A stretch of 64,000 bases of DNA. It comes from Pyrofollis japonicus (lineage in GTDB: Archaea > Thermoproteota > Thermoprotei_A > Sulfolobales > Pyrodictiaceae). The position numbers and the translations under genes are program-made. The DNA is taken from positions 1,293,126 through 1,357,125 of the forward strand of contig NZ_AP028634.1 of NCBI RefSeq assembly GCF_033097485.1, read 5' to 3'. The notes below the pieces were generated by a model that did not search any database, had not been told where the DNA came from, and was given only the letters and a program-made list of their open reading frames with translations. Positions 6,918-54,616 of the stretch are shown piece by piece. Position 1 is the first letter of the stretch, and every line of letters starts with the position of its first letter.

Positions 6918-7313
6918 TACGAAGCATTTTGTATATGAGCTTTGTAGAAGCTTCCTAAACTCTGCTGGAAGCTCTGCGGCACTCTTCGATGAACAAATCA
7001 TCAACGCGTCCTTGGTATAGGAGCTCTTCCTGACAATGAGCCTACGAGGCCTCTTTCCGGGAGAAAAACCATCAATGCTCAAGCCCGCGACATAGGGTTT
7101 TATGAAAGGGTTCACGGCGATAAGGAATAGCTTTGAGAGTCCTCTCTCAGCTACAAGTTGTCTTGCATTGCCAGCATTCTTGCATTCAACGCATACGATG
7201 CAGTCACCACGAATCGTTAGATTAGGACCCTCTTCCAGCTCTAATGTCGTCTCGTGAGCGGCTTGTACGTTTGGATGACCCCTACAGCTTAGCAAGACAA
7301 GGCCATATTGCAC
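6810..7313 (-). CDS. DUF371 family protein, function unknown
   Basis: Archaeal conserved protein of the DUF371 family. It is recognised by [15 protein letters not shown] and RGDCIVCVE near the N-terminus, and by [12 protein letters not shown] in the middle. Length is 167 residues, somewhat longer than I expect for the family. The extra length is at the C-terminus, where the reading frame runs 108 bases into the end of trm5. No catalytic function is established for the family. It is divergent from pcm (83 bases between starts if pcm begins at 7397). Confidence 0.85.
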
Positions 7314-7396
7314 CGGGGTACACCATTATCTTGGCTACCGTTACGCCACCGATAAGAAGAACCCGTATATTAGGGAAATGCTTGGGGTTCTCTGAG

Positions 7397-8089
7397 GTGC
7401 CTATAAGCTTCGAGGAACAACGTCGTAGACTTGTTGAGAGACTCCTTCGAGAAGGCTATATTCGTTCTGAAAAAGTGCTTAAGGCGATGCTGCGCGTGCC
7501 GAGAGAACTTTTTGTCCCTGAAGAGCTGCGTCACCTAGCCTACGAGGACACCCCCCTACCAATAGGCCATGGCCAGACTATTAGTGCACCACACATGGTT
7601 GCATTGATGTGCGAGTACGCGGACCTAGATATAGGCATGAAGGTATTAGAGGTCGGTACCGGCTCCGGATACCATGCAGCAGTTATTGCTGAGATAGTTG
7701 CTCCTAGCGATATGCCTAGAGAAAAATGGGGTCATGTATACTCTGTCGAGAGGATACCCGAGCTAGCGGAGAAGGCAAAGGAGAATTTAAGGAGGGCCGG
7801 ATATGCTGACCGTGTTACAGTGATAGTCGGAGACGGTACTAAGGGTTACCCGGAAAAAGCTCCATACGATAGGATAATAGTCACTGCCGCCGCTCCGGAT
7901 ATCCCCGAACCGCTGGTCGAGCAGCTGAAACCCGGCGGAAAAATGGTTATACCAATAGGCGATAGGTATTCTCAAGTCCTATACATTGTTGAGAAAAGAC
8001 CAGATGGAAGCATCAAGGTGAAGCCAACGATCCCAGTGCTCTTCGTACCCCTTATAGGCGAGCATGGATGGAGACCTCACGAGTATTAG
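7397..8089 (+). CDS. pcm: Protein-L-isoaspartate O-methyltransferase
   Basis: Repairs isoaspartyl damage in proteins by methylating it with SAM, a relevant activity at high temperature. Conserved features are [35 protein letters not shown] and the SAM motif [14 protein letters not shown]. The frame is open from 7244, but homology starts near [17 protein letters not shown]-like sequence (GTATATTA, about 7365-7372) predicts transcription near 7393. GTG 7397 then gives a nearly leaderless 230-residue protein, a typical Pcm length. The stop overlaps the convergent fen gene by 4 bases. Confidence 0.9.
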
Positions 8090-9141
8090 CGTTTACGCAG
8101 CCAAGCATCAAGCCCGGTTTGCTTACCCTTAATATGCTCACGGTAAGCCTTCTTTAGCCTCTCGAGCGCGTTTTTAACCCTCTCAGGGTTAAAGTCATGC
8201 TCCTCTACGAGTATTTCGAAGACCTTCTTCTCGTCGGGCTCCCTCCATTCTAGCTTGTAATCGCTAGTAACTGGCGGGTTGAGGAAGTATTCATAAATCT
8301 TTACAGGGTCAACTGGGAACTCGTGCTTAGGTAGACTTTGTAGCAGTTTAACTGGGTCCTTGTGAGCCTTCACCATTTTTAGAGCAGTCTTCGGCCCAAT
8401 TCCTCTGACGCCATCAGGATTGTAGTCGGTACCAACCAGTATACCTATTGCTATTAACTGCTCCCGTGTAATGCCTAGTGCTTTAAGAAGCACTTCAAGC
8501 TCTATTAGCTCTGGCTTTATCTCGACGTACACGTCTTTTCGCGGCAGTTTTCTCTTACCGGTTATAGCTAGGTTGCGTACAAGTCTTGGGGCACCAAACA
8601 GCAGTGAATCGTAGTCTTGGCTAGCTGCTGCCCACGCGTCGCCTTTCCGCGCCATAAATGCTGCCTGTGCCTCGCCCTCTGCTGGAGCCTGGACGTAGGG
8701 TATCCCCATTGCCTCGAGAAGCTTCTTGGCATCATTCACCATGTCCTCGGTGAGTCTTGATGACATTTGTGCATACCTTCTCGCAGCTTCTATGTCTCCC
8801 TTCTTCACGGCTTCCTCATACTTCTTTATTGCCTCTGATTTTATTTTCTTCCTTCTCTCGATCTCGGCATACTTCATTTCGGGAGGCTGGCCGTCAAAGA
8901 CATATACTACCTTAATACCATTCTCAACCAGGTTTATCGTCCTATAGAATAAGCCGCTTAGATGGCTTGTTATGCGCCCCTTGGAATCCATTAACGGAGT
9001 ACCATCTGGCTGCCTTATGGCTGTCAAGAACTGGTAAAGGGCGTTATAGGCATCAATGGCTACAACCTTGTATTTGAGAAACGATAACTCGATTGTCTTT
9101 ATGGCTTCAGGCGGTATTATCTCTCTAATGTTTACTCCCAA
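8086..9141 (-). CDS. fen: Flap endonuclease FEN-1
   Basis: Structure-specific nuclease that removes 5' flaps during Okazaki-fragment maturation and base excision repair. At 351 residues it is full length. Acidic active-site motifs are present in order: [41 protein letters not shown] and the H2TH region [18 protein letters not shown]. The C-terminus QTGLDAWL is a PCNA-interacting (PIP-box-like) sequence. ATG 9141 begins [13 protein letters not shown], the normal archaeal FEN opening. A small winged-helix-like gene lies just upstream on the same strand. Confidence 0.95.
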
Positions 9142-41714: not shown

Positions 41715-41966
41715 TTAGGCTTTTCCTAGGATCTTTCGAAGCTCTTGTATTCTTGCATCTATTTCCTTAATTTCTTCCTTTATAGCCTCTAGCTCGTATT
41801 CTAGGTAACGGCGATATTCTTCCAAGTAGCGTAGCTCTTCTTCGGGCCAAACGGGATAGGGGGCTGGAAATAGCGCTGGATACATGTATGGCAGGTAGGG
41901 CGGAACTGGTACAGGACGCCGCCAGTATGGCCAATATGGTATGTAGTATATCCACCACCAAGGCAT
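41715..41966 (-). CDS. Aromatic/proline-rich small protein with C-terminal coiled coil
   Basis: 83 residues. The first half is rich in Trp, Tyr and Pro (MPWWWIYYIPYWPYWRRPVP). The second half is a charged coiled coil (EELRYLEEYRRYLEYELEAIKEEI). It resembles small DUF5320-like proteins found near DUF134 regulators. Function unknown. It shares strand and neighbourhood with the Trp-rich gene 46 bases upstream. Confidence 0.7.
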   Translation of the reverse strand: MPWWWIYYIPYWPYWRRPVPVPPYLPYMYPALFPAPYPVWPEEELRYLEEYRRYLEYELEAIKEEIKEIDARIQELRKILGKA

Positions 41967-42012
41967 TGTGCGCACCCCTATTTTGGTAAAACGCTATGCT
42001 GTTGTACGCGCT

Positions 42013-42252
42013 TTACCAGTACCAGGGATTATAGACCGGCACTGGATGCTGGTAAAGCCAGTACCAGGGATAGTAGCGGTTCCAGTAGATCCAGCCCGGT
42101 AACCCGAAGAGCCGCCAACAAGCTCCTCTTCCGCCGAAGACCCAGCCGGGTCGCATCCATGGCGGAAGATAGCTAAATGGGCCTTTTCCTGGCCACGGGC
42201 CCCACCAGCCTCCTTTCCAGCCCCAGCCTCGGCCCCACCATCTCCACGCCAT
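42013..42252 (-). CDS. Tryptophan-rich small protein
   Basis: 79 residues with 17 tryptophans (about 21%) plus many Gly, Pro and Tyr. The N-terminal part is a W/G repeat (MAWRWWGRGWGWKGGWWGPW) and the C-terminal part is W/Y/P rich (YYPWYWLYQHPVPVYNPWYW). One cysteine. AGGTGAT lies just before ATG 42252. Function unknown. Context (DUF134, DUF5320-like protein) suggests a shared small-protein operon. Confidence 0.7.
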   Translation of the reverse strand: MAWRWWGRGWGWKGGWWGPWPGKGPFSYLPPWMRPGWVFGGRGACWRLFGLPGWIYWNRYYPWYWLYQHPVPVYNPWYW

Positions 42253-42350
42253 AGGCATCACCTAGTCTGTTCGACTGGCTCCACTCAGTACTAGAATATA
42301 GTTGGGGACGTATAAATCTTTGTGCAACTGTACGGAACAGAAAGATAAAG

Positions 42351-43431: not shown

Positions 43432-43491
43432 TGTGGCGCCGGGGGCGGGATTTGAACCCGCGCGGCCGTGCAGCCACCGGCTCTTCAGGCC
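43432..43491 (-). repeat. attachment-site copy: 3' fragment of tRNA-Ser
   Basis: 60 bases matching 54528-54587 at 58/60 positions, same orientation, 11,096 bases apart. It holds the 3' CCA end, T arm, variable arm and the anticodon loop of tRNA-Ser, but no 5' half. The two differences are in the variable arm (43472; still pairs as G-U) and the anticodon (43485; GGA becomes GAA). This is the chromosomal-side remnant left after tRNA-gene integration. Confidence 0.9.
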
Positions 43492-43661
43492 CGTGTCATA
43501 TATATTACAAGTTCCCATAGAAACCGTGATCCGGGAACCCAGCATTACTATGCGAATTACTGATGGAATTATAATTATTGCACCAGGAACCTTTATCCAG
43601 ATCATATTTCCTGTCCAGCGACGTGTTGGGGCTCAGAGAACCGTTGCAAAAGGGGGACATT

Positions 43662-44189
43662 CTAGGTTGTTGCGGTTCTGGTTGTTGCATATTTCTTCAT
43701 TCCCGGCATGCAGCTCTCAAGGTAGTCTTTGAATGCGTAGTAGAGTGTTGGTGTGCCTAGTGCTATGAGGATGGCTGAAGCCGCTATAGCTCTCGCCAGC
43801 TCGCCTCCTCTAGCCGTTTTCGTGGAGGCGACTGCTACTAGGAGGACCCCGGTCACCAATAGTATTAGGCCGGCTGCGAACCCGAGCGTGTCCAGCAACA
43901 TTCTCTTCCCCTCGTAGCGGCACGCCATGAGTGCGGCAAGGCTAACTCTGTACCTCCTTCTAGCACCTAGCAGCAACACAATGATGACGACAAACACTAG
44001 GACTGGCGCGAGCGCCGTGAGGAACCTAGCACCACCGGGGGAGGCTCTAGCAAGAGGTACAAGCGCCAAGACGAAGCCGCCAAGAAGCCCACTGGCAACG
44101 AGCAGCTCATCCCGTCTCCAGGCACCAAGCCCGACAACAAGCCCTAGGAGAGAGGAGGCAATGAACAAGACAAGAGAAACGGCATCCAC
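43662..44189 (-). CDS. Five-helix membrane protein (element cargo)
   Basis: 175 residues, about five transmembrane helices (for example VLFIASSLLGLVVGLGAW, FLTALAPVLVFVVIIVLLLG, FAAGLILLVTGVLLVAVA). A cytoplasmic or luminal tail contains one cysteine (LESCMPGMKKY). Starts GTG 44189, 18 bases after the upstream 115-residue gene. Family not recognised. Position in the candidate bacteriocin region makes immunity or export a possible role. Confidence 0.6.
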   Translation of the reverse strand: MDAVSLVLFIASSLLGLVVGLGAWRRDELLVASGLLGGFVLALVPLARASPGGARFLTALAPVLVFVVIIVLLLGARRRYRVSLAALMACRYEGKRMLLDTLGFAAGLILLVTGVLLVAVASTKTARGGELARAIAASAILIALGTPTLYYAFKDYLESCMPGMKKYATTRTATT

Positions 44190-44207
44190 GACTACACGCC
44201 CCCCCGG

Positions 44208-44555
44208 CTAGGCCATGCGCTGGGAAGCCGCGGGACGTCTCCGCTCTACTAGGCGGCTATGCCTATGTCTCAGCAAATAGTATAGCAGGATCATGGCGGC
44301 CTCCCCCGCGAACAACGAGGCCACTACCGCGTCCTCAACAATCTTTGGCACACGTATACCGAAGAGACTCACGGCGCTCACGAAGCCTGCAAGGCATCCG
44401 CCGAGCACCATTGCTAGCCGGGAAATAATGCGTAGCTCTTTCTCATAGCTCTCGCCCCGCCTCCCTGCGGTAAGCATTTCCCAAAGCGCTATCACTGCTA
44501 GAGTTATACTAGCAACAAACGTGAGTAAACCAAGTAGGAAGGAAGTACTAGGCAA
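44208..44555 (-). CDS. Three-helix membrane protein (element cargo)
   Basis: 115 residues: hydrophobic helices at about 5-27, 45-66 and 74-92, and a basic C-terminal tail (RHRHSRLVERRRPA). Start TTG 44555. A TATA-like TATTTAGTAG lies about 25 bases upstream on this strand, so the gene may be leaderless and head its own transcript with the next gene. Family not recognised. Confidence 0.6.
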   Translation of the reverse strand: MPSTSFLLGLLTFVASITLAVIALWEMLTAGRRGESYEKELRIISRLAMVLGGCLAGFVSAVSLFGIRVPKIVEDAVVASLFAGEAAMILLYYLLRHRHSRLVERRRPAASQRMA

Positions 44556-44754
44556 TGCCGTGTCCCTACTAAATAATCCTCATAATGATTGCTAAAAAGC
44601 TAACGCGTATACATTCATATAGCCTCTACATATGTGGAACAAAAACCCAATAGCTTGAAGGTAACTGCTTGCTAATTTTCTTCCACAGCAGATGTTACGC
44701 AGAAGCCAGGGGCCAGCATCCTAGAAGCCGGGACTCCTCCTTACAGAATATGCT

Positions 44755-45141
44755 CTAAGGGGACTTAGTGAGACCTAGGATGATAGCAATAGCTATTACG
44801 AGTGATGATAGAAGAACGAGTAGCGATACAGCATCCTTGGCCACGAGTAGTCCTGCGAGCACAGCGACGACGTTGATAATCCCTGCACCATAAAGGAGGT
44901 ACCGTACTATGAGCCTAGCTAAACCAAACACGGCAAAGCCTACAGCAAATGCATAAAGGGCGGCTGATACCAGCAGAAGAATGACGGATACGGCTAGAAC
45001 CCTATTACATGAACGACCACACTGTAGGCTACCCAAATGCACTGCCGCAGAAACAGCCACTAAGGCAGCTATTGAGACAAGCAGGATAATATTAAAAAAT
45101 ACTTGTTTGGCATGGGTTATGTCACGAGCCATTCTGTTCAT
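44755..45141 (-). CDS. Four-helix membrane protein coupled to the Cys-rich precursor
   Basis: 128 residues from ATG 45141. About four transmembrane helices, with a short cysteine-containing loop (LQCGRSCNRVL). The ATG overlaps the precursor stop codon as ATGA (45138-45141), so its translation depends on the precursor gene. Candidate immunity or secretion partner. Nothing in the sequence itself names a family. The frame is open to 45210, but that part would lie inside the precursor. Confidence 0.65.
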   Translation of the reverse strand: MNRMARDITHAKQVFFNIILLVSIAALVAVSAAVHLGSLQCGRSCNRVLAVSVILLLVSAALYAFAVGFAVFGLARLIVRYLLYGAGIINVVAVLAGLLVAKDAVSLLVLLSSLVIAIAIILGLTKSP

Positions 45142-46073
45142 CCCCATACACATCCTACAAAGCATCCAATTAAACAGCCTATGGTTGACGCCCCCAATAT
45201 AATTGAGCACCAGGCACAGTAGCTACATGATATTACTTCAAAATAGCATAACCCGCATGCTAAGGCACAACTAGCACCGAGTATTGCATTAGGTACTCCA
45301 CACACATCAGAAGCACACTGCTTTAGACAGTCCCAGTATCCGTCTGTTATTATTGCTATTGTTTTTGCTTTCTTGTTGTATGGTTGTAGGTGCTTCTGCA
45401 CCAGCACAGAGAGATGACGCAGCTCCATTGCTACTTTGGGCCAGATTGTCTTTGTGTCGTTGTCTCCGCGTGATATCTTCACTAGTGTCTTTGCTAGTAG
45501 CTTGTAGCTCTGCGACAGTGTGGTTTCGTTTGGTATTACCACTATATCGGCTACTGGGTGTTCTTGGCGGGGCTCGATATTCGCTGTTGTTATGAAGTAC
45601 TTGTAGTTGCCGGTCTCGGGGTCCGTTATGATCCTTGTAACTATTGTTACGTTGAAGCCTGGGTGCTCAGCCCTATAGGCTAGTAGGTAGAAGCTCTGGC
45701 TATAGGTCTGGTTGTATACTGTTATCTCCGCGAACACCATTCTCCTCGTCGAGGTGTTAAGCTCGTAGATCTTCTCAACACTAATATTGAAGGCTGTACT
45801 GGAGTGAGCTGTTACATTGCACACTCTTGTGGCATTGGTTAGGTTTAGTACTTTGTTCAGGGTAGTTATGTTTAGAACTAGGTGGCCGAAGCGGCCGCGC
45901 TGATCAAGCTGTGCTATGACGAGCCTCTTTATGAGTAGGGTGTTATCACCAGGGCTAAGCGCGTAGGCTACGGTAGCGTTGCTAGGCAGTAGCGGCGCCA
46001 CGACTGGCAGCAGGAAGACCGGCAACAATGCTAGGATGAGGCCCCGCTTAGCCACCAAGCCGGGACGGGACAT
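45138..46073 (-). CDS. Secreted Cys-rich precursor, candidate halocin C8-like bacteriocin
   Basis: 311 residues from ATG 46073. Signal peptide (RGLILALLPVFLLPVVAPLL, likely cleavage after AYA), then about 200 residues with some 11 N-glycosylation sequons and only one cysteine. The last 66 residues have 12 cysteines (none of which is in a metal-type CxxC-xxH context), high hydrophobicity and an internal ILGAS repeat. Halocin C8 is known to be cut from the C-terminus of a longer exported precursor, as a stable disulphide-rich peptide. The architecture matches; sequence homology was not testable here. GTG 46082 lies in the GGGTGA ribosome-binding site, so ATG 46073 is used. Next gene overlaps by ATGA. 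Confidence 0.7.
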   Translation of the reverse strand: MSRPGLVAKRGLILALLPVFLLPVVAPLLPSNATVAYALSPGDNTLLIKRLVIAQLDQRGRFGHLVLNITTLNKVLNLTNATRVCNVTAHSSTAFNISVEKIYELNTSTRRMVFAEITVYNQTYSQSFYLLAYRAEHPGFNVTIVTRIITDPETGNYKYFITTANIEPRQEHPVADIVVIPNETTLSQSYKLLAKTLVKISRGDNDTKTIWPKVAMELRHLSVLVQKHLQPYNKKAKTIAIITDGYWDCLKQCASDVCGVPNAILGASCALACGLCYFEVISCSYCAWCSIILGASTIGCLIGCFVGCVWG

Positions 46074-46093
46074 ACGTCTCACCCTTCAACACC

Positions 46094-46121
46094 CTCTTCA
46101 TATATATATATATATGAAGAG
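46094..46121 (-). promoter_or_regulatory. Perfect 28-base palindrome at the precursor core promoter
   Basis: Arms CTCTTCA (46094-46100) and TGAAGAG (46115-46121) flank 14 alternating T/A bases. The centre is about 25-30 bases upstream of the precursor start on the minus strand, where the TATA box is expected. A dimeric repressor bound here would block transcription factor access. Could also be an AT-run of no function, but perfect arms argue otherwise. Confidence 0.6.
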
Positions 46122-46408
46122 TATTAGTCTCATAAGTAGACTGGGTAAGTTTCGGACAAACAATTCCCGCGTAAGATATATAACCAGCCGTTTTTCACCA
46201 AAAGGAGCCAACAGTGTTGCAACGATTATGGGAGCAGAAGAAAATGGTTTATGCCGAGAAGGTTGTAGTGCCTAGCCTTAGGGCAAGGGGACGAAGCTGG
46301 TGATCGCTTCTTATCCGAGATAGCAGACTAGATACAGCGCTTTGTAGAGATAAGGCGCTAAGCTAGCTATGCCTTGTCTATGTCACCGTCTAGGAAACAA
46401 GCTGTTCT

Positions 46409-46630
46409 TTATCGAAGTATGTAGCGTTCTATCTCGCCTTTACTGGTTATTCTGAGTATGTCCCATTTCTCACCGTCGAAATGTATGAGGTACGTGTTTT
46501 TGTGCAGGAGGCCTTTCTCGAGCTCTTTCACGTTGCAGGGCTTGAATACCTTGGCGTCCAGCTCTACTATCTTCTTGGCCCTCCTGTACTCTATCCTAGC
46601 GCTTATTGGCGCCTCTGGCTCATCTGCCAC
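46409..46630 (-). CDS. Small protein, last of a three-gene element operon
   Basis: 73 residues, acidic N-terminus (MADEPEAPIS), then alternating basic and hydrophobic segments (RAKKIVELDAKVF, EKWDILRITSKGEIERYILR). No domain recognised. GGAG precedes GTG 46630, three bases after the previous stop. Tightly packed with the two genes upstream. Confidence 0.6.
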   Translation of the reverse strand: MADEPEAPISARIEYRRAKKIVELDAKVFKPCNVKELEKGLLHKNTYLIHFDGEKWDILRITSKGEIERYILR

Positions 46631-46633
46631 GTC

Positions 46634-46960
46634 TTACTCCTCTATCTCGTATATGATTATCCTACCGTCACCGGTCTTCTCGACTATGAGGTCCCTGGAC
46701 AGCCTCCTTATCTCCCCGGGCCTGAGGGAGGCTATTTCTCTTGGCCTGACCTGCTTCCAGAGGGCCTTTGCTAGGCGGGTTATGATTCTCGAGGAGAGGG
46801 CCAGGGCACCGGCCACGCTCTGTGCCTGGGTAGTGTCGCCCTCTATGCTTGTCATCCCCGTTGTGTCGCTGGAGCCCTGGACTGGGAGTAGTTCTAGGCC
46901 CTCTACTGGCGGCTGGGCGACCCGGCTGGGGCTCCAGGGCTTCTGCCTACTAATGCTCAA
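46634..46960 (-). CDS. Unknown protein, middle of a three-gene element operon
   Basis: 108 residues. Low-complexity first half (PSRVAQPPVEGLELLPVQGSS), then a helix (AGALALSSRIITRLAKALWKQV) and a charged end. Start TTG 46960, with GGGTGA 6-7 bases upstream, six bases after the upstream stop. No family recognised. Confidence 0.6.
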   Translation of the reverse strand: MSISRQKPWSPSRVAQPPVEGLELLPVQGSSDTTGMTSIEGDTTQAQSVAGALALSSRIITRLAKALWKQVRPREIASLRPGEIRRLSRDLIVEKTGDGRIIIYEIEE

Positions 46961-46966
46961 GCCTGC

Positions 46967-47419
46967 TCACCCTACTGGTTTCCACATGATCTTGGTGCTC
47001 CAGAATACTAGGTAGAGTGGTTCACCCATATCTGTTCTGTAGCTCGTGTTGCGCGACACCATTGCTGCTTCGCCGCTTACGCGTATCCGGTACCTCTTAT
47101 CGCCGACCGGTAGCTCTATCTCCTCCCAGGCGGGCTCCTGGCTCTCTATGTCCACTAGCTCCCAGCCCTCCTGGGGAGGCTTATCTGGCGGGGCAAGCGG
47201 CTTGTTCCTCACAGCCTCCACGAGCTCCTCGGGCACATGGAGGGATGCGACGCCGCCAGCAGTCTTTACCGCGAAGTTTGCTCCCCCAAAGGGGGAGAAG
47301 CCGACGTACCTAGCCCCAACTATGACAACACGGAGGACGAGCCTGCTCCCATCCGTGAGCACTACTAAACCTGGCCTGCTCGATACAACCGTGTAGACCC
47401 CACTATTTGTGGCGCTCAA
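46967..47419 (-). CDS. Unknown protein, first of a three-gene element operon
   Basis: 150 residues with a beta-rich N-terminus (VYTVVSSRPGLVVLTDGSRLVL), a Pro-rich middle (LAPPDKPPQEGW) and a hydrophobic end (LYLVFWSTKIMW). Start TTG 47419. An AGTTTAAGTA TATA-like sequence about 35-45 bases upstream on this strand could drive the operon. No family recognised. Confidence 0.6.
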   Translation of the reverse strand: MSATNSGVYTVVSSRPGLVVLTDGSRLVLRVVIVGARYVGFSPFGGANFAVKTAGGVASLHVPEELVEAVRNKPLAPPDKPPQEGWELVDIESQEPAWEEIELPVGDKRYRIRVSGEAAMVSRNTSYRTDMGEPLYLVFWSTKIMWKPVG

Positions 47420-47687
47420 GGATCAAGACCCCAGGTAAGCTAGGAATAATATTCTCTACTTAAACTCCCTGCCAATAAGCTAATGCATTATTGCACTGTC
47501 TAAGTTTAAGTTGCAAGTAGTTTATCTAATGAAGTCGAATAGAGCCTTAGCGCCTTGCTAGTGGTGCCTCAAAAGCTTGAGCCGTCTATGTATAGGTGTT
47601 TGCGGGGAAGTGCTATTTTGTTGGCTGTATTACTTGTATATTTGGGTTTGTTGTATGTGTTGTAATGATAGCGAGTGCATTGGCTCT

Positions 47688-48014
47688 ATGCGTGGCGTTG
47701 GGATAGTGGGGGTGCTTTGCCGCCGCCTAGGCTACATGTGCGGCGTCGACCCGGAGGCCGCCCCGGTCCTCGCCGCCTACGAGCTCGCAGTCCTCGAGAC
47801 CTACCTCCTCCTCTACAACGCTGGAGGCGAGGAACTCGTCACAGAGTGCCTGGGGGACGAGAACTGCCTACGAGAGCTAATAGACACAGTTAACACCGCC
47901 GCAGAACTCCACATAAGGGGCAACAGGTACTTCTACACACTCACACTAAGAGACATCGAAACCATGCTCCGGATCGCCGAGAAGCTAGCTCTGGTAAGCA
48001 AGTCCCATAGATAA
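47688..48014 (+). CDS. Small protein with four cysteines, function unknown
   Basis: 108 residues from ATG 47688. Two N-terminal cysteines (VLCRRLGYMCGVD) and two more (TECLGDENCLREL) flank a helical core (APVLAAYELAVLETYLLLYNAGG). A TATA-like GTATATTT (47635-47642) predicts transcription near 47664, which favours ATG 47688 over the open frame to 47577. No family recognised. It is the only plus-strand gene between the two minus-strand blocks. Confidence 0.55.
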   Translation: MRGVGIVGVLCRRLGYMCGVDPEAAPVLAAYELAVLETYLLLYNAGGEELVTECLGDENCLRELIDTVNTAAELHIRGNRYFYTLTLRDIETMLRIAEKLALVSKSHR

Positions 48015-49032
48015 ATATGGCCTATAAAGTGCCTAAAGGTTACTCTTGTGCGAAGAATCTAGGAAAACATTGAAACCAAAGGTATTTTGCGCGATGAATT
48101 GCTGAGGAACGATCTAGGAGAAAAAGGAGCCTCCTTCTAAGCCTGACTGTCATCAAGGCCTTAACTATTACCTCTAAGAATCAAGGACAGTAGAGCTTGA
48201 CATACCAGTCCTTGGCTGCACAATTCTACGGCGCTTTTAAACGGGGGTGATATGAGTCGGCATGTGGGTTGTGTCTTAGTTGTCGTTCCCTAGTAACTTA
48301 TAGGGGCGTTGGTGGATGCCCTTTCACTTCTCTCAAGGTTCTCGCTTGCCTCCTTGTCTGATACTCTTGGATCGAAGGCAGTTATGAGACTAGTTGCCAG
48401 CGCACAGTCTGTTACGAGACTACATGGGCAGGTGTTTTGCCCGCGGCATTTAAGGAAACGAATTATGCCTCATAGCTGTCTTGCCGCTCTACCGGGCCGC
48501 AAGGACTCGTAGCCACCTTCGCGGCCACGGCGGCCACGTGAACAGCCCATGTAGGTGTATAGCGATGACTTGAGGACTCATAACTGGCCTAGAAAAACCA
48601 AGACCAGCCCTCATAGCTGCCTTGAGCCATAAGGGAATGATTCCTAAGCAACTGTCGAGAAATCTGCTTGCCGTCACCCCTTCGTACTCATGTATACACG
48701 TAGCTGGGCAATAATTATGAGGAGAGATTATGAGAAGTAGTGAACGGTTAGGAGTCGTTGCATACGTATTTTAGGAAAGATGGTACTATTAAGCGCGGCT
48801 ACACGGCGAATCACTTGACAAGGGAGGTAAGGGATGGGATAGAGTAGGCTGTAGCAGGCCCCATGCGGGAGAGCATGTCTGCTATGATTATTGGTGCAAC
48901 AATTACCAGCACCAGCTGGTAGGATTGGGGAGAAGACACAACACAACTGCTGCCTAGAAGGTAGAGGGCTTAGAAAGGCGAGAAAAGCTTGTTTGTTCGA
49001 GCCTCAGTACCCCTTACCACATATCGGCGTAT
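48015..49032. other. 1-kb gene-poor stretch in the element with remnants
   Basis: No full-length gene. It holds a well-formed start region: CTTTTAAAC near 48235, then GGGGGTGAT before ATG 48251. That frame stops after 13 codons (MSRHVGCVLVVVP). Farther on, a plus-strand frame around 48766-48830 reads RKDGTIKRGYTANHLTREVRDGIE before a stop, which looks like a coding remnant. I interpret the stretch as a decayed gene region. Confidence 0.4.
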
Positions 49033-49716
49033 TCAATGTCCGGGTTGTATAGTAGTGCGTAGTCCTCTTCTCCGCCCCCTCATCCTCGCCGTCCTTATGG
49101 ATTCGAACGCTCTCCGCAAGTCGTTGTAACGCACATGGCTATAGGGTATTGGTACATATACTACCGCGTTATCGTGGATAGCGAGAACCCCTTCCCTGTA
49201 ACCGACTTTAGAGAAGAACACCTCAACAACAAAGGGGTTGTCGAACACGAAGAGCTTCATGCCGAGACTGCCTCTCCTATAGTTATAGTATAGGGCTAGT
49301 AGTAGGAGCTCCCCGCCTTCACCCATGTATGTTATTACATCCTCCCATCTGGTAGTAAACATTGTGTCGCTCATCCGCTTAAGGGTTTTGAGCCTCATCG
49401 CTATGCGCTGAGGCACCGTTGCTGATTTACCTGTATACCTTCTCAGCCTATATTCATCGTATATGTTGATAACTATGTCCCTAGTCCTCAAGACAATCCT
49501 TTGGTTCGATGATGATCTTAGTACGGTGTATTTCTTTACCCGAGTCCTCCTAAGCTGCTGATACATGGGCTCCGGGATAAGAACCTCTACAGGCCGGAGT
49601 GATGAAAGCACGAGACCCCTAGTAGCCGAGTACACTGATTTCCCGTACCGTGCCGGGTTGTAGCCATAGGCCTCGAAATAGATCATTCTCGATAATTCGC
49701 GACTATATACGGTCAT
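49033..49716 (-). CDS. Unknown element protein, second of a pair
   Basis: 227 residues, basic. Contains YFEAYGYNPARYGKSVY near the start, and ends with an Arg-rich tail (RMRGRRRGLRTT). No domain recognised. Its ATG lies 14 bases inside the preceding gene, so the pair is co-translated. The basic tail could bind nucleic acid. Confidence 0.6.
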   Translation of the reverse strand: MTVYSRELSRMIYFEAYGYNPARYGKSVYSATRGLVLSSLRPVEVLIPEPMYQQLRRTRVKKYTVLRSSSNQRIVLRTRDIVINIYDEYRLRRYTGKSATVPQRIAMRLKTLKRMSDTMFTTRWEDVITYMGEGGELLLLALYYNYRRGSLGMKLFVFDNPFVVEVFFSKVGYREGVLAIHDNAVVYVPIPYSHVRYNDLRRAFESIRTARMRGRRRGLRTTIQPGH

Positions 49717-50608
49717 GATTAAACCCCATGAGGGGGTCGATAGCCATGGAGGCGAGTAGGAGGGCGTGGCTTAGCGCCGCATTACCGCTGACCGGGAATA
49801 ATGGATTAATGAGTGTCAGCTTCCTGACAACGAGTATAGGTATAGATACTCGAGGAGCGTGGAGGTCTAGCACCCTGAGCTCAAGCAAGTCTTTAACGAG
49901 TATCGCCTCAGTTGCACGGGGATTGAGGGCTGTGATTAATCCCCTGCTCTTGTCTATAACAAGTCCAACAACAGACCATGGCCATGGAAGCGGGAAGGCT
50001 TGCAGCCTCTGTGCTAGTATACGGGCTCTTTCTCCATTACTGATATCGCTCGGCATCTTGTCGAATTTTATAATTGGTTTGCTCTTGTGAAGCAGCTTAT
50101 AGACACTGATCTTATCTAGTATGCGGTCGACATAGCCGTATGCGTAGGGAAGCCTTGTAGGCTGTTTAATGCGTGTCTGCGTTATTTCTATAGTTGCTAT
50201 AGCAATATGGTTGCTTACAGCTATTATCCTCGACGCACACCAGTGCTGCTCAAGGAACCTCTTAAACGCCCAGAAGTCTCTGAACCTTTTCACCGATACC
50301 ATTCTCGGCCTCTTGCCCGGTACAGGTGGAGATACCTGGGTAACTAGTTCCCCATCAAGCTTTGAGAGAGCCTCATAGGGGTTGAGGAACACGAGTTCAT
50401 ATGTAATAGTATCGATGCGTGTTGGCTCGATATGCGCGAAGGTTTTTGGCCTAATACGCCTCTCAACATTATACCGTGAATTACATGAACTATAAGCCTC
50501 GAACTCATAATAGTCGGGAAAGCTTAGTATACCTCGTGAGCAGCACGATTCTCGTAGCGCCTCGAGTACAGGGATAAGCAGTCCCTTAACCCTCTTCAAC
50601 CCTATCAT
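49703..50608 (-). CDS. Unknown element protein, first of a pair
   Basis: 301 residues, with a central AFPLPWPWSVVGLVIDKSRGLIT and a long N-terminal part with three cysteines (ESCCSRG, SSCNSR). A TATA-like CTTTTTAAGT (50636-50646 on this strand) suggests a leaderless ATG 50608. No family recognised. Confidence 0.6.
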   Translation of the reverse strand: MIGLKRVKGLLIPVLEALRESCCSRGILSFPDYYEFEAYSSCNSRYNVERRIRPKTFAHIEPTRIDTITYELVFLNPYEALSKLDGELVTQVSPPVPGKRPRMVSVKRFRDFWAFKRFLEQHWCASRIIAVSNHIAIATIEITQTRIKQPTRLPYAYGYVDRILDKISVYKLLHKSKPIIKFDKMPSDISNGERARILAQRLQAFPLPWPWSVVGLVIDKSRGLITALNPRATEAILVKDLLELRVLDLHAPRVSIPILVVRKLTLINPLFPVSGNAALSHALLLASMAIDPLMGFNHDRI

Positions 50609-50751
50609 CTCAGAAGAATTCTATAGCATTGAAAGGCACTTAAAAAGTGGCAAAATACGCTCCACACTCTTGCTCCATAGAATGAGCAAGCGCAAGTAGT
50701 GGTAGATAAGAGATAAGTATTACACAATAATTATATGATTGTTAGGGTCTC

Positions 50752-51795
50752 TTGTTGGATGCTCGTGTACTCGTTAAATTAAGCTGTTATGATTTTCGAG
50801 CCGAGAAGGAAAAGATTGGGAAGAGTAAGGCGTGGATTTCTCGCATTCTCCTCCCCAGGCTCCAGGGCATGTTCGTGGCCCATCTCTCGTTCCTTGAGCC
50901 GCTCGGCGTCGGCCACGTCTACGCCGTGCTGAATGACCGCGAGAAGTGGAGGTACTACCGGGACAGGTATGCGGGCAGGCAGAAGCTGCTGATAAGGGAG
51001 ATGCGGGACATCCCGCTTGTCAGGTACGTGCACAGGTTCTACATCTTCGGCGACGGCACCATAGGCGCCCTCTACTATGCTCCGAAGGAGGTCAGGGACG
51101 AGATCGTGGCGCGGCTGGACTCGTTCTACGACGAGGTCTACGATGCGAGGGTCTACCCTGTATTGAATTGCCTCGGCAAGCTCTACCCTGAGGCCTCCGA
51201 GGGCGACGCTTGGCGCCTCGGGAAGGCAATGCTGGAGAAGCTGAACACCGCGCCGCCCTACAGGAGCAGGAACAGGTTCCTAGACTACCTGCTTATCAGC
51301 GTGATGGAGCTGGAGCCCCTTCTCACGCTCCGGGAGCTGCGGAGCCTGGTCTACGCGGCCCGCGCCCGCATAGAGAAGGAGCTGGGCGAGGAGCTGGAGC
51401 TAAGCATGCGCTACGTCAAGAGGCACTACGTCGAGCTTAGCCGGCGCTACGTGCTCGGAAGACTATTCGTTGGCAGACCGAACGTGTGCAGTTACCCAGT
51501 CCTCGTAGTGGAAAAGAAGTACAGGGAGCTACTCTACGGGCTGGCAGCGGTAACAATGGGTTCAACCATGCTAGCCGACACAGGGGACACAGTAATAGCA
51601 TCGGTTGGCGCTACGTCTTTTGCTGAGCAATCGGAATTTATCGACATATTTCTCCCCGGCCTAGAAAAAATTACAACAACGGTCTCTGTAACAGCTGTCC
51701 CGTTTCCTTTCGAGATGTACAACCCCATAGAGGAATCATGGAGCTTAGAAGAACCAGCAGTAGAGAGAATAGAGGAAATAGTGAAAAAATACTGA
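50752..51795 (+). CDS. Unknown element protein, possible regulator
   Basis: 347 residues. Middle region is helical and basic (LRELRSLVYAARARIEKELGEELELSMRYVKRHYVELSRRYVLGRL) and the C-terminal part is a hydrophobic beta region (YGLAAVTMGSTMLADTGDTVIASVG). Start TTG 50752, preceded by AT-rich sequence. The layout (helical DNA-binding-like core, beta C-terminus) could fit a regulator; no family is recognised. GC and codon use look higher than in the flanking element genes. Confidence 0.5.
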   Translation: MLDARVLVKLSCYDFRAEKEKIGKSKAWISRILLPRLQGMFVAHLSFLEPLGVGHVYAVLNDREKWRYYRDRYAGRQKLLIREMRDIPLVRYVHRFYIFGDGTIGALYYAPKEVRDEIVARLDSFYDEVYDARVYPVLNCLGKLYPEASEGDAWRLGKAMLEKLNTAPPYRSRNRFLDYLLISVMELEPLLTLRELRSLVYAARARIEKELGEELELSMRYVKRHYVELSRRYVLGRLFVGRPNVCSYPVLVVEKKYRELLYGLAAVTMGSTMLADTGDTVIASVGATSFAEQSEFIDIFLPGLEKITTTVSVTAVPFPFEMYNPIEESWSLEEPAVERIEEIVKKY

Positions 51796-51827
51796 CTGGC
51801 TGATAGGGGCTGAGCACTACTAGATTA

Positions 51828-51941
51828 TTAAAACGGCCCTCTCCAGTTCTTTGCTTCAAGTACCTCTATCATTGTCGTCGCTAATGCCATGTATGGTGCT
51901 ATTCTCAGGAGTTTCTTCCTGAGCTCCTTCCTGCTCCTCAT
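51828..51941 (-). CDS. 37-residue protein with a strong ribosome-binding site
   Basis: Begins MRSRKELRKKLLRIAPYMAL and ends EAKNWRGPF. ATG 51941 is preceded by GGAGGTGAGAGGGA, the strongest Shine-Dalgarno match of the element. Basic N-terminus then hydrophobic stretch. Function unknown. Converges with the preceding plus-strand gene. Confidence 0.5.
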   Translation of the reverse strand: MRSRKELRKKLLRIAPYMALATTMIEVLEAKNWRGPF

Positions 51942-52176
51942 TCCCTCTCACCTCCTGTTATGTTCGTTCCCCTGTTCGTTCATTGATTGGCGCCTTCAGA
52001 GAACTTAAAAACAAGCAAGCACGGTTGACGAGCTAGTAATTGGCTTATTGATTATGAGAAGGTTGTATACCAATGCGATAATAGCGGTATTTATACTTTA
52101 GTTTACTGGGATATATGACTCCGGTAAACCAATATACATATAATTGTATAGCCGTGTTAAAGCACGGTGTAGTTCT

Positions 52177-52329
52177 ATGGAGAATAAGAAGTATTGTGAT
52201 GACTTGTTTTCTTGCCTTATAAGGTTTTTTAATGATAGTTACGAGGATAAGAAAAAGAAGAAGAGAAAAGACGGTAATGATGACCCGCTCCCAGTCACGC
52301 CAGCCATGCTATTGCTGCGCCCTGTCTAA
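52177..52329 (+). CDS. Small Lys-rich protein
   Basis: About 50 residues from ATG 52177: MENKKYCDDLFSCLIRFF, a run of lysines and a Pro-rich tail. TATA-like GGATATATGA about 52107-52116. Three alternative hairpins lie directly after its stop. Function unknown. It could also be non-coding. Confidence 0.35.
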   Translation: MENKKYCDDLFSCLIRFFNDSYEDKKKKKRKDGNDDPLPVTPAMLLLRPV

Positions 52330-52331
52330 TC

Positions 52332-52389
52332 AGGCAGGCATGTACGCGGCAACGTGCCTGCCTCCATCAGCAGGCACTACTTTTAGTGC
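52332..52389 (+). repeat. Cascade of three overlapping hairpins
   Basis: AGGCAGGCA (52332-52340) pairs with TGCCTGCCT (52355-52363). GTGCCTGC (52354-52361) pairs with GCAGGCAC (52370-52377), using the same central bases. GCACTA (52374-52379) pairs with TAGTGC (52384-52389). Neighbouring hairpins exclude each other. They lie between a plus gene stop and a convergent minus gene, so terminator or RNA-switch roles are possible. Confidence 0.6.
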
Positions 52390-52401
52390 TTACTCTCTGA
52401 G

Positions 52402-52692
52402 CTACTGCTTCTTGTTGCTATCAATGGGCCGGGACGGAGGAGCTGCTTGAAGCTTCTTCGCTAACTGGATTGATCGTGCTTCAAGGTATATCCTCATTAA
52501 TCTTGAGCCGAGCATCCTCATTATTGCTTTTTCCTCCTCCTCGTCCAGATCAATAACCCCATTATTCTTCAATACTAGCAAGCCTAGCGCTATCAATAGA
52601 CTTGTGAGGCCACTTACACTAATACCGTATTTTGCTGACATGCCAAGCAGTATTCGGTGAACTGAATCGTCTATCCTGACGAGCCGGGACAT
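52402..52692 (-). CDS. CopG-like ribbon-helix-helix protein
   Basis: 96 residues from ATG 52692. N-terminal ribbon-helix-helix (SRLVRIDDSVHRILLGMSAKYGI, then VSGLTSLLIALGLLVL) and an acidic linker (DLDEEEEKA), helical C-terminus. Likely a transcriptional regulator of the element, as in many archaeal plasmids. A TATA-like TTTAAATACG lies 25 bases upstream on this strand. Confidence 0.7.
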   Translation of the reverse strand: MSRLVRIDDSVHRILLGMSAKYGISVSGLTSLLIALGLLVLKNNGVIDLDEEEEKAIMRMLGSRLMRIYLEARSIQLAKKLQAAPPSRPIDSNKKQ

Positions 52693-52996
52693 GCTGCTAC
52701 CCATATAGTTACAGCGTATTTAAAAGCTTAGGAATACTGGGCATTGCCACTATATTAGCACTAGCGATACACCAGGTCTACAATAACTGCAACAACTAGT
52801 AACAAGCAAACCCCTCTCACACACCCCTCTCCTCACAGCCCCCTGCCCCACCCAGCACAATGATTGTCGTTGCGTAGAGTCCTCCTCCTAGACCTCTTTT
52901 TAAAAGGCTTGATAAAGGCATTTAGAATAAGGGATCAAGTGATATTAAAGGGAGCTGTTGAGGAAAGGGACGGTAATACCATTGGGAGGCAAGAAG
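52693..52996. other. Divergent promoter region of regulator and small gene
   Basis: 304 bases. On the minus side is the regulator TATA-like box. On the plus side TTTTTAAAAGG (about 52908-52918) predicts transcription near 52940, upstream of the small gene at 52997. No other feature seen. Confidence 0.45.
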
Positions 52997-53116
52997 GTGG
53001 CGAGGCTTAATGAGGAAAAATACGTAATATATCTTCCCAAGGATTTGAACGAGCTCTGGCGGGAGTTGCATGAGCGTAGGAGGAAGATAAACATCTACAT
53101 AGAGATCCTTGACTAG
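52997..53116 (+). CDS. 39-residue protein facing the integrase
   Basis: Begins VARLNEEKYVIYLPKDLNEL and ends KINIYIEILD, a short strand-helix-strand that could be a DNA-binding or antitoxin-like fold. GGGAGG lies 7 bases before GTG 52997. Its TAG and the integrase TAG share the four bases CTAG (53113-53116). Position next to the integrase suggests an accessory such as an excision factor; not shown. Confidence 0.55.
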   Translation: MARLNEEKYVIYLPKDLNELWRELHERRRKINIYIEILD

Positions 53117-54411
53117 GCTGTGGCCGGTTTTGGCACCCCTCGCTTAAGTACCGTTTTTAGGTAATCAATGTCCTCGAGTCCTCTTCTCAGAACCTCCATT
53201 ACCCTGGGATACCAGTAGTCTGCATCCGATAAGAGGTCTGAGTACACCGCCTTGCTTATCTCACCTATCTCCCCCAGCCTTGACTGGATGAACTTCGCCG
53301 CTGACTCCTTATTCACTGTTTTCTCAAGTACTCTCCAGTTCAGCTTCCGGAGATACTTTGGCCGCAACAGGTTGTGCTTCCTAGCGTAGTCGCTCACCTT
53401 GCTCCTATCCCTCTTAGTGCCGCCGTGCTTCTCTAGTAGCGGTAGCAGGTCGCGGGGAAAGTATACCCATTCACACAACTTGTTGCTCTCCCTAAGCCCC
53501 ATATAGTATCTGCAAAAGCTCTTGAAGCACACGAGGCGTGGGCTGTAGTCGTCCAGCATCTCAACGTGTACTTCCTCGTCCGGGCTCCAAGCCCCAACAA
53601 GCTTGACTACGTGCTCCAGCCGTATACCGCTATAGTACATTAATAGGTAATACAAGTAGTAGAGCTCGTGCCTGCTCCTTAGATAATCCATGGTCTTCCT
53701 GAACTGGTCTAGGTCGATCCTGTACGCCTTGACCCGTAGTTTGTAGCTGCGCGAGGGCACCACCTCCATTATCCAGGCCATTGTCTCGCCGCTTATCCTC
53801 CTTCTGAAGTATAGGTACTGTATGTAGTGTCTGAAGATGTTGCGCAACCAGCCGTTAGGGTGCCTCGCCACCCACTCGATTAGTTGCTCGCTCAGCTCCC
53901 TGCCCTCTAGGTGCTTCCTGAAGAGGTTCCGGTAGTACTTTATTGTCTCCGGGTCCCTGACCTTTGTGCGCTTCTTGCGCTCCATTAGGAAGTTTTCGAA
54001 GCCCTCGCTCCACTCAAGCTTGACCCCAGCGTATGATATGCCGAGCATCTTCTTGAGGTCTTCGCGGAAGTTCTCAACGGTGAAACGCAGTATAGCATTC
54101 TTGATGTACTCGTCTCTAGTCGCGAGCGCTAGTAGCTCCAGCACAGCGCTGTAATCGGGTACGCCGTCCCCCGTTACCAGTCCCAGCGCGCGGAGCTTCT
54201 CCTCCCCCCGCACTATCTCCTCGAACTCCGCCCTAGATAGGTGCCTCAGAGCCCTCGCCACAACCTCGTCCGGGACCCTGCGCTGACCACTAACATACCT
54301 GTATAGACTGGATTTCGCCACGCCAAGCGTCTTCGCCGCCTCGTTGAAGCCAAGCTTATCCCTAATTTTCTCCAGTATCGCCCTCCGAGCCGAATCACTC
54401 AGTGCGCCCAC
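53113..54411 (-). CDS. int: Archaeal tyrosine recombinase (integrase)
   Basis: 432 residues from GTG 54411 (TTG 54456 is also possible). N-terminal helix-turn-helix (FNEAAKTLGVAKSSLYRYVSG) and a core-binding region. The catalytic domain has YYSGIRLEHVVKL (first Arg), KFIQSR near the second Arg, and a probable nucleophile in AVYSDLLSDADYWYPRV. It matches the archaeal phage-integrase family found in integrative plasmids and viruses. TATA ACTTATAAG lies at 54518-54526 right beside the tRNA end. Uninterrupted, so the element can be active (not of the split SSV type). Confidence 0.87.
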   Translation of the reverse strand: MGALSDSARRAILEKIRDKLGFNEAAKTLGVAKSSLYRYVSGQRRVPDEVVARALRHLSRAEFEEIVRGEEKLRALGLVTGDGVPDYSAVLELLALATRDEYIKNAILRFTVENFREDLKKMLGISYAGVKLEWSEGFENFLMERKKRTKVRDPETIKYYRNLFRKHLEGRELSEQLIEWVARHPNGWLRNIFRHYIQYLYFRRRISGETMAWIMEVVPSRSYKLRVKAYRIDLDQFRKTMDYLRSRHELYYLYYLLMYYSGIRLEHVVKLVGAWSPDEEVHVEMLDDYSPRLVCFKSFCRYYMGLRESNKLCEWVYFPRDLLPLLEKHGGTKRDRSKVSDYARKHNLLRPKYLRKLNWRVLEKTVNKESAAKFIQSRLGEIGEISKAVYSDLLSDADYWYPRVMEVLRRGLEDIDYLKTVLKRGVPKPATA

Positions 54412-54527
54412 ATTAACCCCTTTGAACCAGTTATCGTCCCCTGAGAATTCACCCAATAATTCCCACCCAGGGCATTGACCGGGAACCAAGAACCAGGAAG
54501 AGAACTGAATAATAGGAGGCTTATAAG

Positions 54528-54587
54528 TGTGGCGCCGGGGGCGGGATTTGAACCCGCGCGGCCGTGCGGCCACCGGCTCTCCAGGCC
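54528..54587 (-). repeat. attachment-site copy within tRNA-Ser(GGA)
   Basis: 60 bases in the 3' part of the intact tRNA, 58/60 identical to 43432-43491 and in the same orientation. The identity begins at the anticodon stem, typical of integration into the anticodon-loop/T-arm side of tRNA genes. The element supplies this 3' half, so the tRNA remains functional. Confidence 0.9.
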
Positions 54588-54616
54588 GGCCCCTTAGACC
54601 GCTCGGGCACCCCGGC
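54530..54616 (-). tRNA. tRNA-Ser (anticodon GGA)
   Basis: 87 bases, class II tRNA. Acceptor GCCGGGG pairs with CCCCGGC. Anticodon stem CCGGC-CUGGAGA-GCCGG with anticodon GGA. Variable arm GGCCG-CA-CGGCC. T arm GCGGG-UUCAAAU-CCCGC. CCA is encoded (54530-54532). No intron. Host of the element. Confidence 0.96.

What the first reader, a model, noticed from the sequence alone, without database searches (positions are those of the whole stretch)
45138..46073. Candidate halocin C8-like bacteriocin precursor in a crenarchaeal element
The sequence shows signal peptide, long low-cysteine N-terminal domain with about 11 sequons, and a C-terminal 66-residue segment with 12 cysteines, hydrophobic, with an ILGAS repeat. 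Halocin C8 is known to be processed from the C-terminus of a longer exported protein whose N-terminal part gives immunity. The architectural match is inference; homology was not tested. If right, it is a disulphide-rich antimicrobial peptide from a hyperthermophile, on a mobile element.
Basis: partly seen in the sequence, partly recalled or inferred. Interest (0 to 1): 0.9.

Follow-up and report, generated by a model that had tools for sequence, protein, structure and literature searches.

The report
Swappable secreted peptide toxin, hyperthermophilic archaeon
A small mobile DNA element in a heat-loving archaeon carries a secreted protein whose cysteine-rich tail behaves like a plug-in antimicrobial peptide, traded between carrier proteins together with a small membrane protein that probably protects the producer; this looks like an archaeal counterpart of bacterial swappable-toxin systems, with no activity shown yet.

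Summary
In detail: window 45138-46073(-) encodes a 311-aa protein with a signal peptide, 11 sequons and a 67-residue hydrophobic tail holding 12 of its 13 cysteines. The "halocin C8-like" idea is partly right. The tail does not match the halocin C8 domain, and the N-domain is not the halocin immunity domain. But the protein belongs to a patchy Thermoproteota-wide family (carrier domain with a confident model and no PDB match), in which the C-terminal tail after a near-invariant Asp is hypervariable (54-104 aa, even cysteine number in 31 of 33). Some members carry tails that do resemble the halocin C8 domain (6/10 tails, E 0.00045-0.54, versus 0/10 shuffles; profile match E 6e-9 for one). Tails are exchanged: the window's tail recurs (58% identity) in another family on an unrelated N-domain, next to a homologue of the window's 4-helix membrane protein, which was found in only those two of 211 genomes. 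28 of 30 members have a small membrane-protein gene directly downstream. The gene lies in an 11-kb element integrated in tRNA-Ser. Best reading: a polymorphic, disulphide-rich secreted peptide toxin with a separate membrane immunity protein. No activity has been shown.

The parts
45138..46073 (-). Secreted precursor gene, 311 aa (stop codon at 45138-45140; alternative GTG start at 46082)
45951..46073 (-). N-terminal hydrophobic signal peptide, about residues 1-41 (boundary approximate)
   Evidence: sequence; low pLDDT over residues 1-45 in the model
45342..45941 (-). Carrier (N-) domain, residues 45-244: beta sheet plus two helices, 10 sequons, ends in the near-invariant junction Asp244
   Evidence: family alignment; AlphaFold2 mean pLDDT 90.6, pTM 0.87; no PDB match with E <= 0.001
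45141..45341 (-). C-terminal cassette (candidate toxin peptide), residues 245-311, 12 Cys, predicted helical
44755..45141 (-). Four-TM membrane protein, 128 aa; its ATG overlaps the precursor's TGA (ATGA): candidate immunity protein
44208..44555 (-). Small multi-TM ORF (115 aa), same strand, downstream; possible further immunity or accessory gene
43662..44189 (-). Small multi-TM ORF (175 aa), same strand, downstream; possible further immunity or accessory gene
43432..43491 (-). attL: 60-bp copy of the 3' part of tRNA-Ser (96.7% identical)
54528..54587 (-). attR repeat, inside tRNA-Ser
54530..54616 (-). tRNA-Ser (anticodon GGA), integration site
53113..54528 (-). Tyrosine integrase (PF16795 Phage_integr_3) with N-terminal helix-turn-helix
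   Evidence: E 2.5e-21

Best explanation
The gene is the toxin gene of a polymorphic secreted-peptide (archaeocin) system. Shown by sequence: the protein has a signal peptide; a conserved extracellular-type carrier domain ends in a strand with a near-invariant Asp; behind it sits an exchangeable hydrophobic peptide with an even number of cysteines; a small multi-TM protein gene follows at once; and in the window's case tail and membrane gene recur as a pair on an unrelated carrier. Inferred: the carrier is exported and glycosylated and keeps the peptide folded and harmless; the peptide, cross-linked by six disulphides, is released by proteolysis near the Asp junction; it inserts into the membrane of related archaea; the paired membrane protein protects the producer. 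An 11-kb tRNA-Ser element spreads the module.
For: Small TM gene (62-252 aa, at least 1 TM) starts within -79 to +129 bp of 28/30 family genes (at least 2 TM: 26/30), against 11% and 3% of 257 other genes from the same loci; the window gene makes it 29/31, with an ATGA overlap. Cassette exchange: window tail 58% identical to G136 with N-domains not homologous (hhalign E 0.16); G020/G440b tails 62% versus N-domains 24%; conversely G279/G339b N-domains 94% versus tails 36%; the carrier tree mixes tail types. The tail's partner travels with it: window and G136 TM proteins are homologous (30% identity, z 10.2, rank 8 of 595 pairs) and a profile of them rings convincingly only in those two of 211 genomes. 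Even cysteine count in 25/27 Cys-rich tails and 31/33 overall. Halocin C8 domain similarity: 6/10 tails versus 0/10 shuffles; G523b also rings at genome level with 19.4 bits; G150 hhalign E 6e-9, score 48.9 versus 21.1 best shuffle. Halocin C8 genes of Halobacterium and Haloferax and their Sulfolobaceae relatives also have a small TM ORF right behind them. In G021, decayed tails are followed by intact TM genes. An unused Bathyarchaeota locus showed the same pattern: carrier 68%, different tail with 10 Cys, 4-TM gene at +42.
Against: No activity, cleavage or secretion data. The window tail itself has no detectable halocin C8 homology. No processing protease or export system is encoded next to it. 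TM counts come from a simple hydropathy scan and ORFs from a mechanical caller. TIGR04449 matches of relatives lie below its curated cut-off (24 bits). Cys parity, neighbourhood and swap counts come from related sequences, so the formal probabilities overstate. dN/dS of the TM paralogues is only moderately low (about 0.45-0.95).
Confidence: 0.74

Rival explanations
1. Uncleaved toxin: the whole glycoprotein is displayed or secreted and kills as one 34-kDa protein or on contact, the tail being the membrane-inserting tip; the membrane protein is still immunity.
For: SSV9 B310, a Sulfolobus toxin of the same size with signal peptide and a downstream TM gene, is active at its full predicted mass (PMC8628083). 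No protease or defined cleavage motif besides the conserved Asp was found.
Against: Halocin C8, the known toxin whose domain resembles some of these tails, is cleaved to a 76-aa peptide (PMC11509114). SSV9 B310 is not homologous to this family.
Confidence: 0.14
2. Structural or redox surface protein: the cysteine-rich hydrophobic tail is a membrane anchor or disulphide-linked oligomerisation domain and the TM protein is its subunit; variation reflects virus pressure on a surface protein.
For: Tails are hydrophobic (hydropathy 0.57-1.66); many sequons; Bathyarchaeal members carry an exported rhodanese domain, which fits sulphur or redox chemistry; a few Thermoproteales/Ignisphaera-type members have only two cysteines.
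Against: An anchor need not be replaced wholesale together with its neighbour gene, nor resemble the halocin C8 domain. Decayed tails next to intact TM genes do not fit an obligate subunit pair.
Confidence: 0.09
3. Self/non-self recognition or signalling pair (peptide pheromone and membrane receptor) rather than a toxin and immunity protein.
For: Matched peptide and membrane-protein pairs and allelic diversity would look the same at sequence level.
Against: Most partners are 2-4 TM proteins without recognisable signalling domains (window partner: no Pfam match); similarity of some tails to halocin C8, a toxin.
Confidence: 0.03

Closest known systems
Halocin C8 (TIGR04449 C-terminal domain; PF22862 Hac8_like_N precursor domain)
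   Same: Exported precursor about 300 aa long, hydrophobic cysteine-rich peptide at the C-terminus with an even Cys number, small TM ORF directly downstream; several tails of this carrier family resemble the C8 domain.
   Different: The window tail has no detectable C8 homology; carrier domain unrelated to Hac8_like_N; no twin-arginine motif in the signal peptide; immunity most likely by a separate membrane protein instead of the precursor's N-terminus.
Polymorphic toxin systems (Zhang et al. 2012, PMC3482391)
   Same: Constant N-terminal trafficking region, exchangeable C-terminal payload, adjacent immunity gene, stand-alone payload cassettes.
   Different: The payload is a short disulphide-rich hydrophobic peptide, not a nuclease or other enzyme; carriers are only about 200-400 aa; no known export or processing module.
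Sulfolobus spindle-shaped virus toxins (SSV9 B310, SSV1 a291; PMC8628083, PMC13431529)
   Same: Crenarchaeal, mobile-element-borne, signal peptide, about 300 aa, small TM gene next door, hypervariable locus.
   Different: Glucanase-like beta fold (as reported for these toxins), no cysteine-rich tail in B310, no sequence match of B310.
VARTIG modules of Thermococcales (PMC8416519)
   Same: Hypervariable surface protein with C-terminal shuffling and downstream membrane proteins.
   Different: Ig-domain proteins, different archaea, no cysteine-rich peptide.

Membership tests
Halocin C8 family | C-terminal match to TIGR04449 above 24 bits | tested here: not met
   No match for the window protein or tail; hhalign score 14.4, within shuffles (max 16.0). 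Best relative G523b 21.1 bits, also below the cut-off; G150 hhalign E 6e-9.
Halocin C8 family | Precursor N-domain Hac8_like_N (PF22862) / HalI | tested here: not met
   No Pfam match for P0001 while the haloarchaeal control scores 1.1e-44; profile comparison E 0.19.
Halocin C8 family | Twin-arginine (Tat) signal peptide | tested here: not met
   By inspection the signal region (MSRPGLVAKRGLILALL...) has KR and no RR.
Halocin C8 family | Hydrophobic cysteine-rich C-terminal peptide with even Cys number | tested here: met
   12 Cys in 67 residues, hydropathy +1.20.
Halocin C8 family | Proteolytic release of the peptide; immunity by the N-terminal part | not testable with these tools
   Needs protein chemistry and genetics; carrier swapping argues against N-domain immunity.
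Polymorphic toxin systems | Same N-terminal carrier with unrelated C-terminal payloads | tested here: met
   Window and G011: 48% identical overall and N-domains alignable, tails unrelated; G279/G339b 94% N, 36% tail.
Polymorphic toxin systems | Same payload on different carriers, with its own partner gene | tested here: met
   Window/G136 tail 58%, N-domains not homologous, TM partners homologous and confined to these two of 211 genomes.
Polymorphic toxin systems | Orphan payload cassettes with immunity genes | tested here: met
   G021 positions 1081335 and 1245276: decayed cassettes followed by intact TM genes; cassette with only the junction end of the carrier near G399. None seen in the window's own genome.
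Polymorphic toxin systems | Enzymatic toxin domain (nuclease, deaminase, etc.) | tested here: not met
   No Pfam, NCBIfam or PDB match for the tail.
Polymorphic toxin systems | Toxicity and cognate protection | not testable with these tools
SSV toxin family | Sequence homology to SSV9 B310 | tested here: not met
   Family profile does not ring on AY423772; tblastn of phage records finds nothing meaningful.

The most novel reading that the evidence does not exclude
A phylum-wide archaeal system in which a small secreted carrier domain with no fold match in the PDB is a universal launcher for exchangeable disulphide-rich membrane-active peptides, each moving between unrelated carriers as a locked pair with its own multi-TM immunity protein, with decayed orphan pairs kept as immunity reservoirs and with mobile elements as vehicles. 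In effect polymorphic toxins whose warheads are bacteriocin peptides, halocin C8 being just one of many interchangeable warheads.
Probability: 0.55. Interest if true: 0.85.

Novelty: new variant of a known kind. Interest (0 to 1): 0.73.

Why it matters
Hardly any antimicrobial peptide is known from hyperthermophilic archaea. This family gives about 30 concrete toxin/immunity candidates, each with a testable matching rule (which membrane protein protects against which tail), and peptides with four to ten predicted disulphides from organisms living near the boiling point of water. It also suggests that halocin C8, usually described as a haloarchaeal single-gene system, is one payload in a much wider modular scheme, and that separate small membrane proteins next to halocin C8 genes deserve testing.

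Tried and rejected
Direct family searches of the window protein in NCBIfam, Pfam and PHROGs: nothing. Homology with SSV9 B310: rejected. Homology of the carrier with haloarchaeal HalI domains: rejected. Known fold for the carrier: only insignificant NTF2-like hits, no PDB or viral match with E <= 0.001. Viral contigs (IMG/VR) with four queries: no relative. First genome-contig scan with the window protein: nothing. Profile comparison of the window tail with the halocin domain: within shuffles. Matching TM partners for other shared tails: clear for window/G136 and for the G021 copies, weak for G020/G440b (z 2.8) and absent for G126/G191/G237a, so tail-partner matching is not shown for every type. 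Other family members next to integrases: not seen within the searched genomes except the window. Makarova et al. 2019 (mBio 10:e00715-19), which expanded the halocin C8 family in archaea, is not held in the library, so I could not check whether some members are already listed there; this limits the novelty claim.

Full report
OBSERVATION. The minus-strand ORF at 45138-46073 encodes 311 residues from an ATG preceded by GGTGA. It begins with a hydrophobic signal region, has 11 N-x-S/T sequons (in residues 45-244, 10 versus 2.3 expected on shuffling) and 13 cysteines, 12 of them between residues 249 and 308. The tail (residues 245-311) is hydrophobic (+1.20 versus -0.12 for the N-domain).

A REAL, PATCHY FAMILY. 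The window protein has no match in NCBIfam, Pfam or PHROGs. Whole-genome searches find homologues: 48% identity over nearly the full length in G011 of the same taxonomic family, 14 of 214 genomes of the order and 25 of 398 genomes of the phylum. Two named members retrieved by a separate scan are Candidatus Bathyarchaeota MAGs. Several Bathyarchaeota-type members carry a rhodanese domain (PF00581, E down to 5e-19) in front of the shared domain. Organism names of the G genomes are not given; from the genome lengths I take G021 (1,875,953 bp) for Ignisphaera aggregans and G007 (1,843,267 bp) for Pyrolobus fumarii. That is recall, not a test; the window would then be in the Pyrodictiaceae.

TWO PARTS WITH DIFFERENT FATES. 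The alignment of 24 carriers shows a conserved domain ending in a short hydrophobic strand and a near-invariant Asp (Asp244 in the window protein). Behind it the sequences have nothing general in common except hydrophobicity and cysteines. AlphaFold2 gives the carrier domain with mean pLDDT 90.6 and pTM 0.87, beta strands plus two helices, with the junction strand at its end. No solved structure matches with E <= 0.001, nor by sequence. The tail is predicted helical with lower confidence (pLDDT about 64-75; model numbering is one less than protein numbering because the initiator Met was left out).

CYSTEINE PARITY. Among 27 cysteine-rich tails 25 have an even number of cysteines. One of the two exceptions (G484) runs off its contig. 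Six further tails have exactly two, so 31 of 33 are even. This is what full disulphide pairing would give. The count is not of independent sequences.

LINK TO HALOCIN C8. TIGR04449 (halocin C8 domain) is found above its cut-off in Sulfolobaceae-type genomes of family f11. Against ten tails of the carrier family it gives matches for six (E 0.00045, 0.0097, 0.013, 0.029, 0.36, 0.54; in five of the six it is the best-scoring of 18,950 families); against shuffles of ten tails that keep composition it gives none. In a scan of 398 genomes with TIGR04449, the first hit after the f11 proteins was G523b, a carrier-family member found independently through its N-domain. A profile of haloarchaeal and f11 halocin-type domains matches the tail of G150 with E 6e-9, score 48.9 versus 21.1 for the best of 20 shuffles, over 87 columns; G150's gene is cut by its contig, but the 34 carrier residues left closely match G050a. 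For the window's own tail the score (14.4) lies within its shuffles (max 16.0). The carrier does not match Hac8_like_N or haloarchaeal N-domains. So the carrier family appears to use a halocin C8-like domain as one of several payloads; the window's payload is a different, undetectably related or unrelated type.

CASSETTE EXCHANGE. Same tail on different carriers: window and G136 58% identical over 65 residues, while the N-domains are not detectably homologous (profile E 0.16); G020 and G440b tails 62%, N-domains 24%; G191 and G237a 41% versus 22%. Same carrier with different tails: G279 and G339b N-domains 94%, tails 36%; the window and G011 share the carrier but not the tail. On a maximum-likelihood tree of the carriers, tail types B, C and E each occur in both halves (support for deep branches is moderate).

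PARTNER GENE. A small ORF with predicted TM segments starts within -79 to +129 bp of the stop in 28 of 30 family genes (26 of 30 with two or more TMs), against 11% (3%) of 257 other genes in the same loci. I regard the ORF counted for G440a as doubtful. In the window the partner is a 128-aa four-TM protein whose ATG overlaps the precursor's TGA. It is homologous to the partner of the G136 gene (z 10.2; 30% identity), and a profile of the two rings in no other genome of the order beyond two weak 50-residue matches inside a 318-residue frame. Tail and membrane protein thus recur together on unrelated carriers, as expected of a toxin/immunity pair. For other shared tails the partner homology is weak or undetected. 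Halocin C8 genes in Halobacterium and Haloferax larsenii and their f11 relatives also have a small TM ORF directly downstream.

ORPHANS. In G021 several tail remnants with frameshifts or without a carrier are followed by intact TM genes. Pairwise dN/dS among these TM genes is mostly 0.45-0.65, with some pairs near 0.95 and one very young pair not informative: purifying selection on the whole, but weak evidence. Toxin decay with retained immunity is the natural reading.

OUT-OF-SAMPLE CHECK. A Bathyarchaeota locus fetched last (L132) shows what the model predicts: carrier 68% identical to G399, a clearly more divergent tail with 10 cysteines, and a four-TM gene 42 bp downstream.

MOBILE ELEMENT. 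tRNA-Ser(GGA) lies at 54530-54616(-). A 60-bp stretch including its 3' part is repeated at 43432-43491 with 2 mismatches. The integrase at 53113-54528(-) belongs to PF16795 (E 2.5e-21). The 11.1-kb interval between the repeats contains the precursor and three small membrane-protein ORFs at its left end. Two genomes of the same genus have a tRNA-Ser gene next to the homologue of the flanking gene (59-61% identical) and no precursor.

MECHANISM. Shown: signal peptide, carrier, exchangeable disulphide-type tail, coupled membrane gene, co-transfer of tail and partner in one case, halocin-like tails in relatives, mobile element. Inferred: secretion, proteolysis near Asp244, membrane attack on related archaea, protection by the partner. 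SSV9 B310, a Sulfolobus toxin of the same size and gene arrangement but unrelated sequence, is active uncleaved (PMC8628083), so release of the tail should not be assumed.

NOVELTY. Polymorphic toxins in archaea and an expanded halocin C8 family were described by Makarova et al. 2019, which I could not read here; I know its abstract only from memory. The carrier family is not covered by any Pfam, NCBIfam or PHROGs model tested. I file it as a new variant of a known kind: polymorphic toxin logic with bacteriocin-type peptide payloads.

Noticed in passing
window 43432-54587: Boundaries of an 11.1-kb integrated element in tRNA-Ser(GGA) with an archaeal integrase fused to a helix-turn-helix; most of its other genes have no Pfam or PHROGs match.
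   Followed up: partly
window 54580-54582 and 43483-43486; L117:2430-2516, L118:1305-1391: The tRNA-Ser beside the homologous flanking gene in two relatives reads TGA, the window's tRNA-Ser reads GGA and the left repeat reads GAA at that position; integration or tRNA gene turnover may have changed the anticodon at this site. The window genome holds a second near-identical tRNA-Ser at C1:852767.
   Followed up: partly
L038 about 7600-8100, L048 about 7280-7900, L049 about 6450-7100, L047 (all genome G021): Several decayed precursor or cassette remnants followed by intact small TM genes in one genome, i.e. possible kept immunity without toxin.
   Followed up: partly
L091, L092, L096, L097 (Pfam tested); L094, L095 (by eye): Exported rhodanese domains fused in front of the carrier in Bathyarchaeota-type members; perhaps a sulphur or redox role in handling the cysteine-rich tail.
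   Followed up: partly
L083, L084, L104, L105, L106, L107: Carrier variants whose hydrophobic tails hold only two cysteines and carry a net positive charge, unlike the mostly acidic cysteine-rich tails; reminiscent of other hydrophobic bacteriocins.
   Followed up: no
L101:7257-9440, L097, L102: Members with a further region behind the cysteine-rich segment, so the cassette is not always C-terminal.
   Followed up: no
L034:3304-3510, L035:3299-3505: Conserved 68-aa hydrophobic ORF directly behind halocin C8-like genes of Halobacterium and Haloferax: a possible overlooked immunity or accessory gene.
   Followed up: no
window 41715-41975 and 42013-42261 (-): Two small proteins extremely rich in Trp, Tyr and Pro next to the element.
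   Followed up: no
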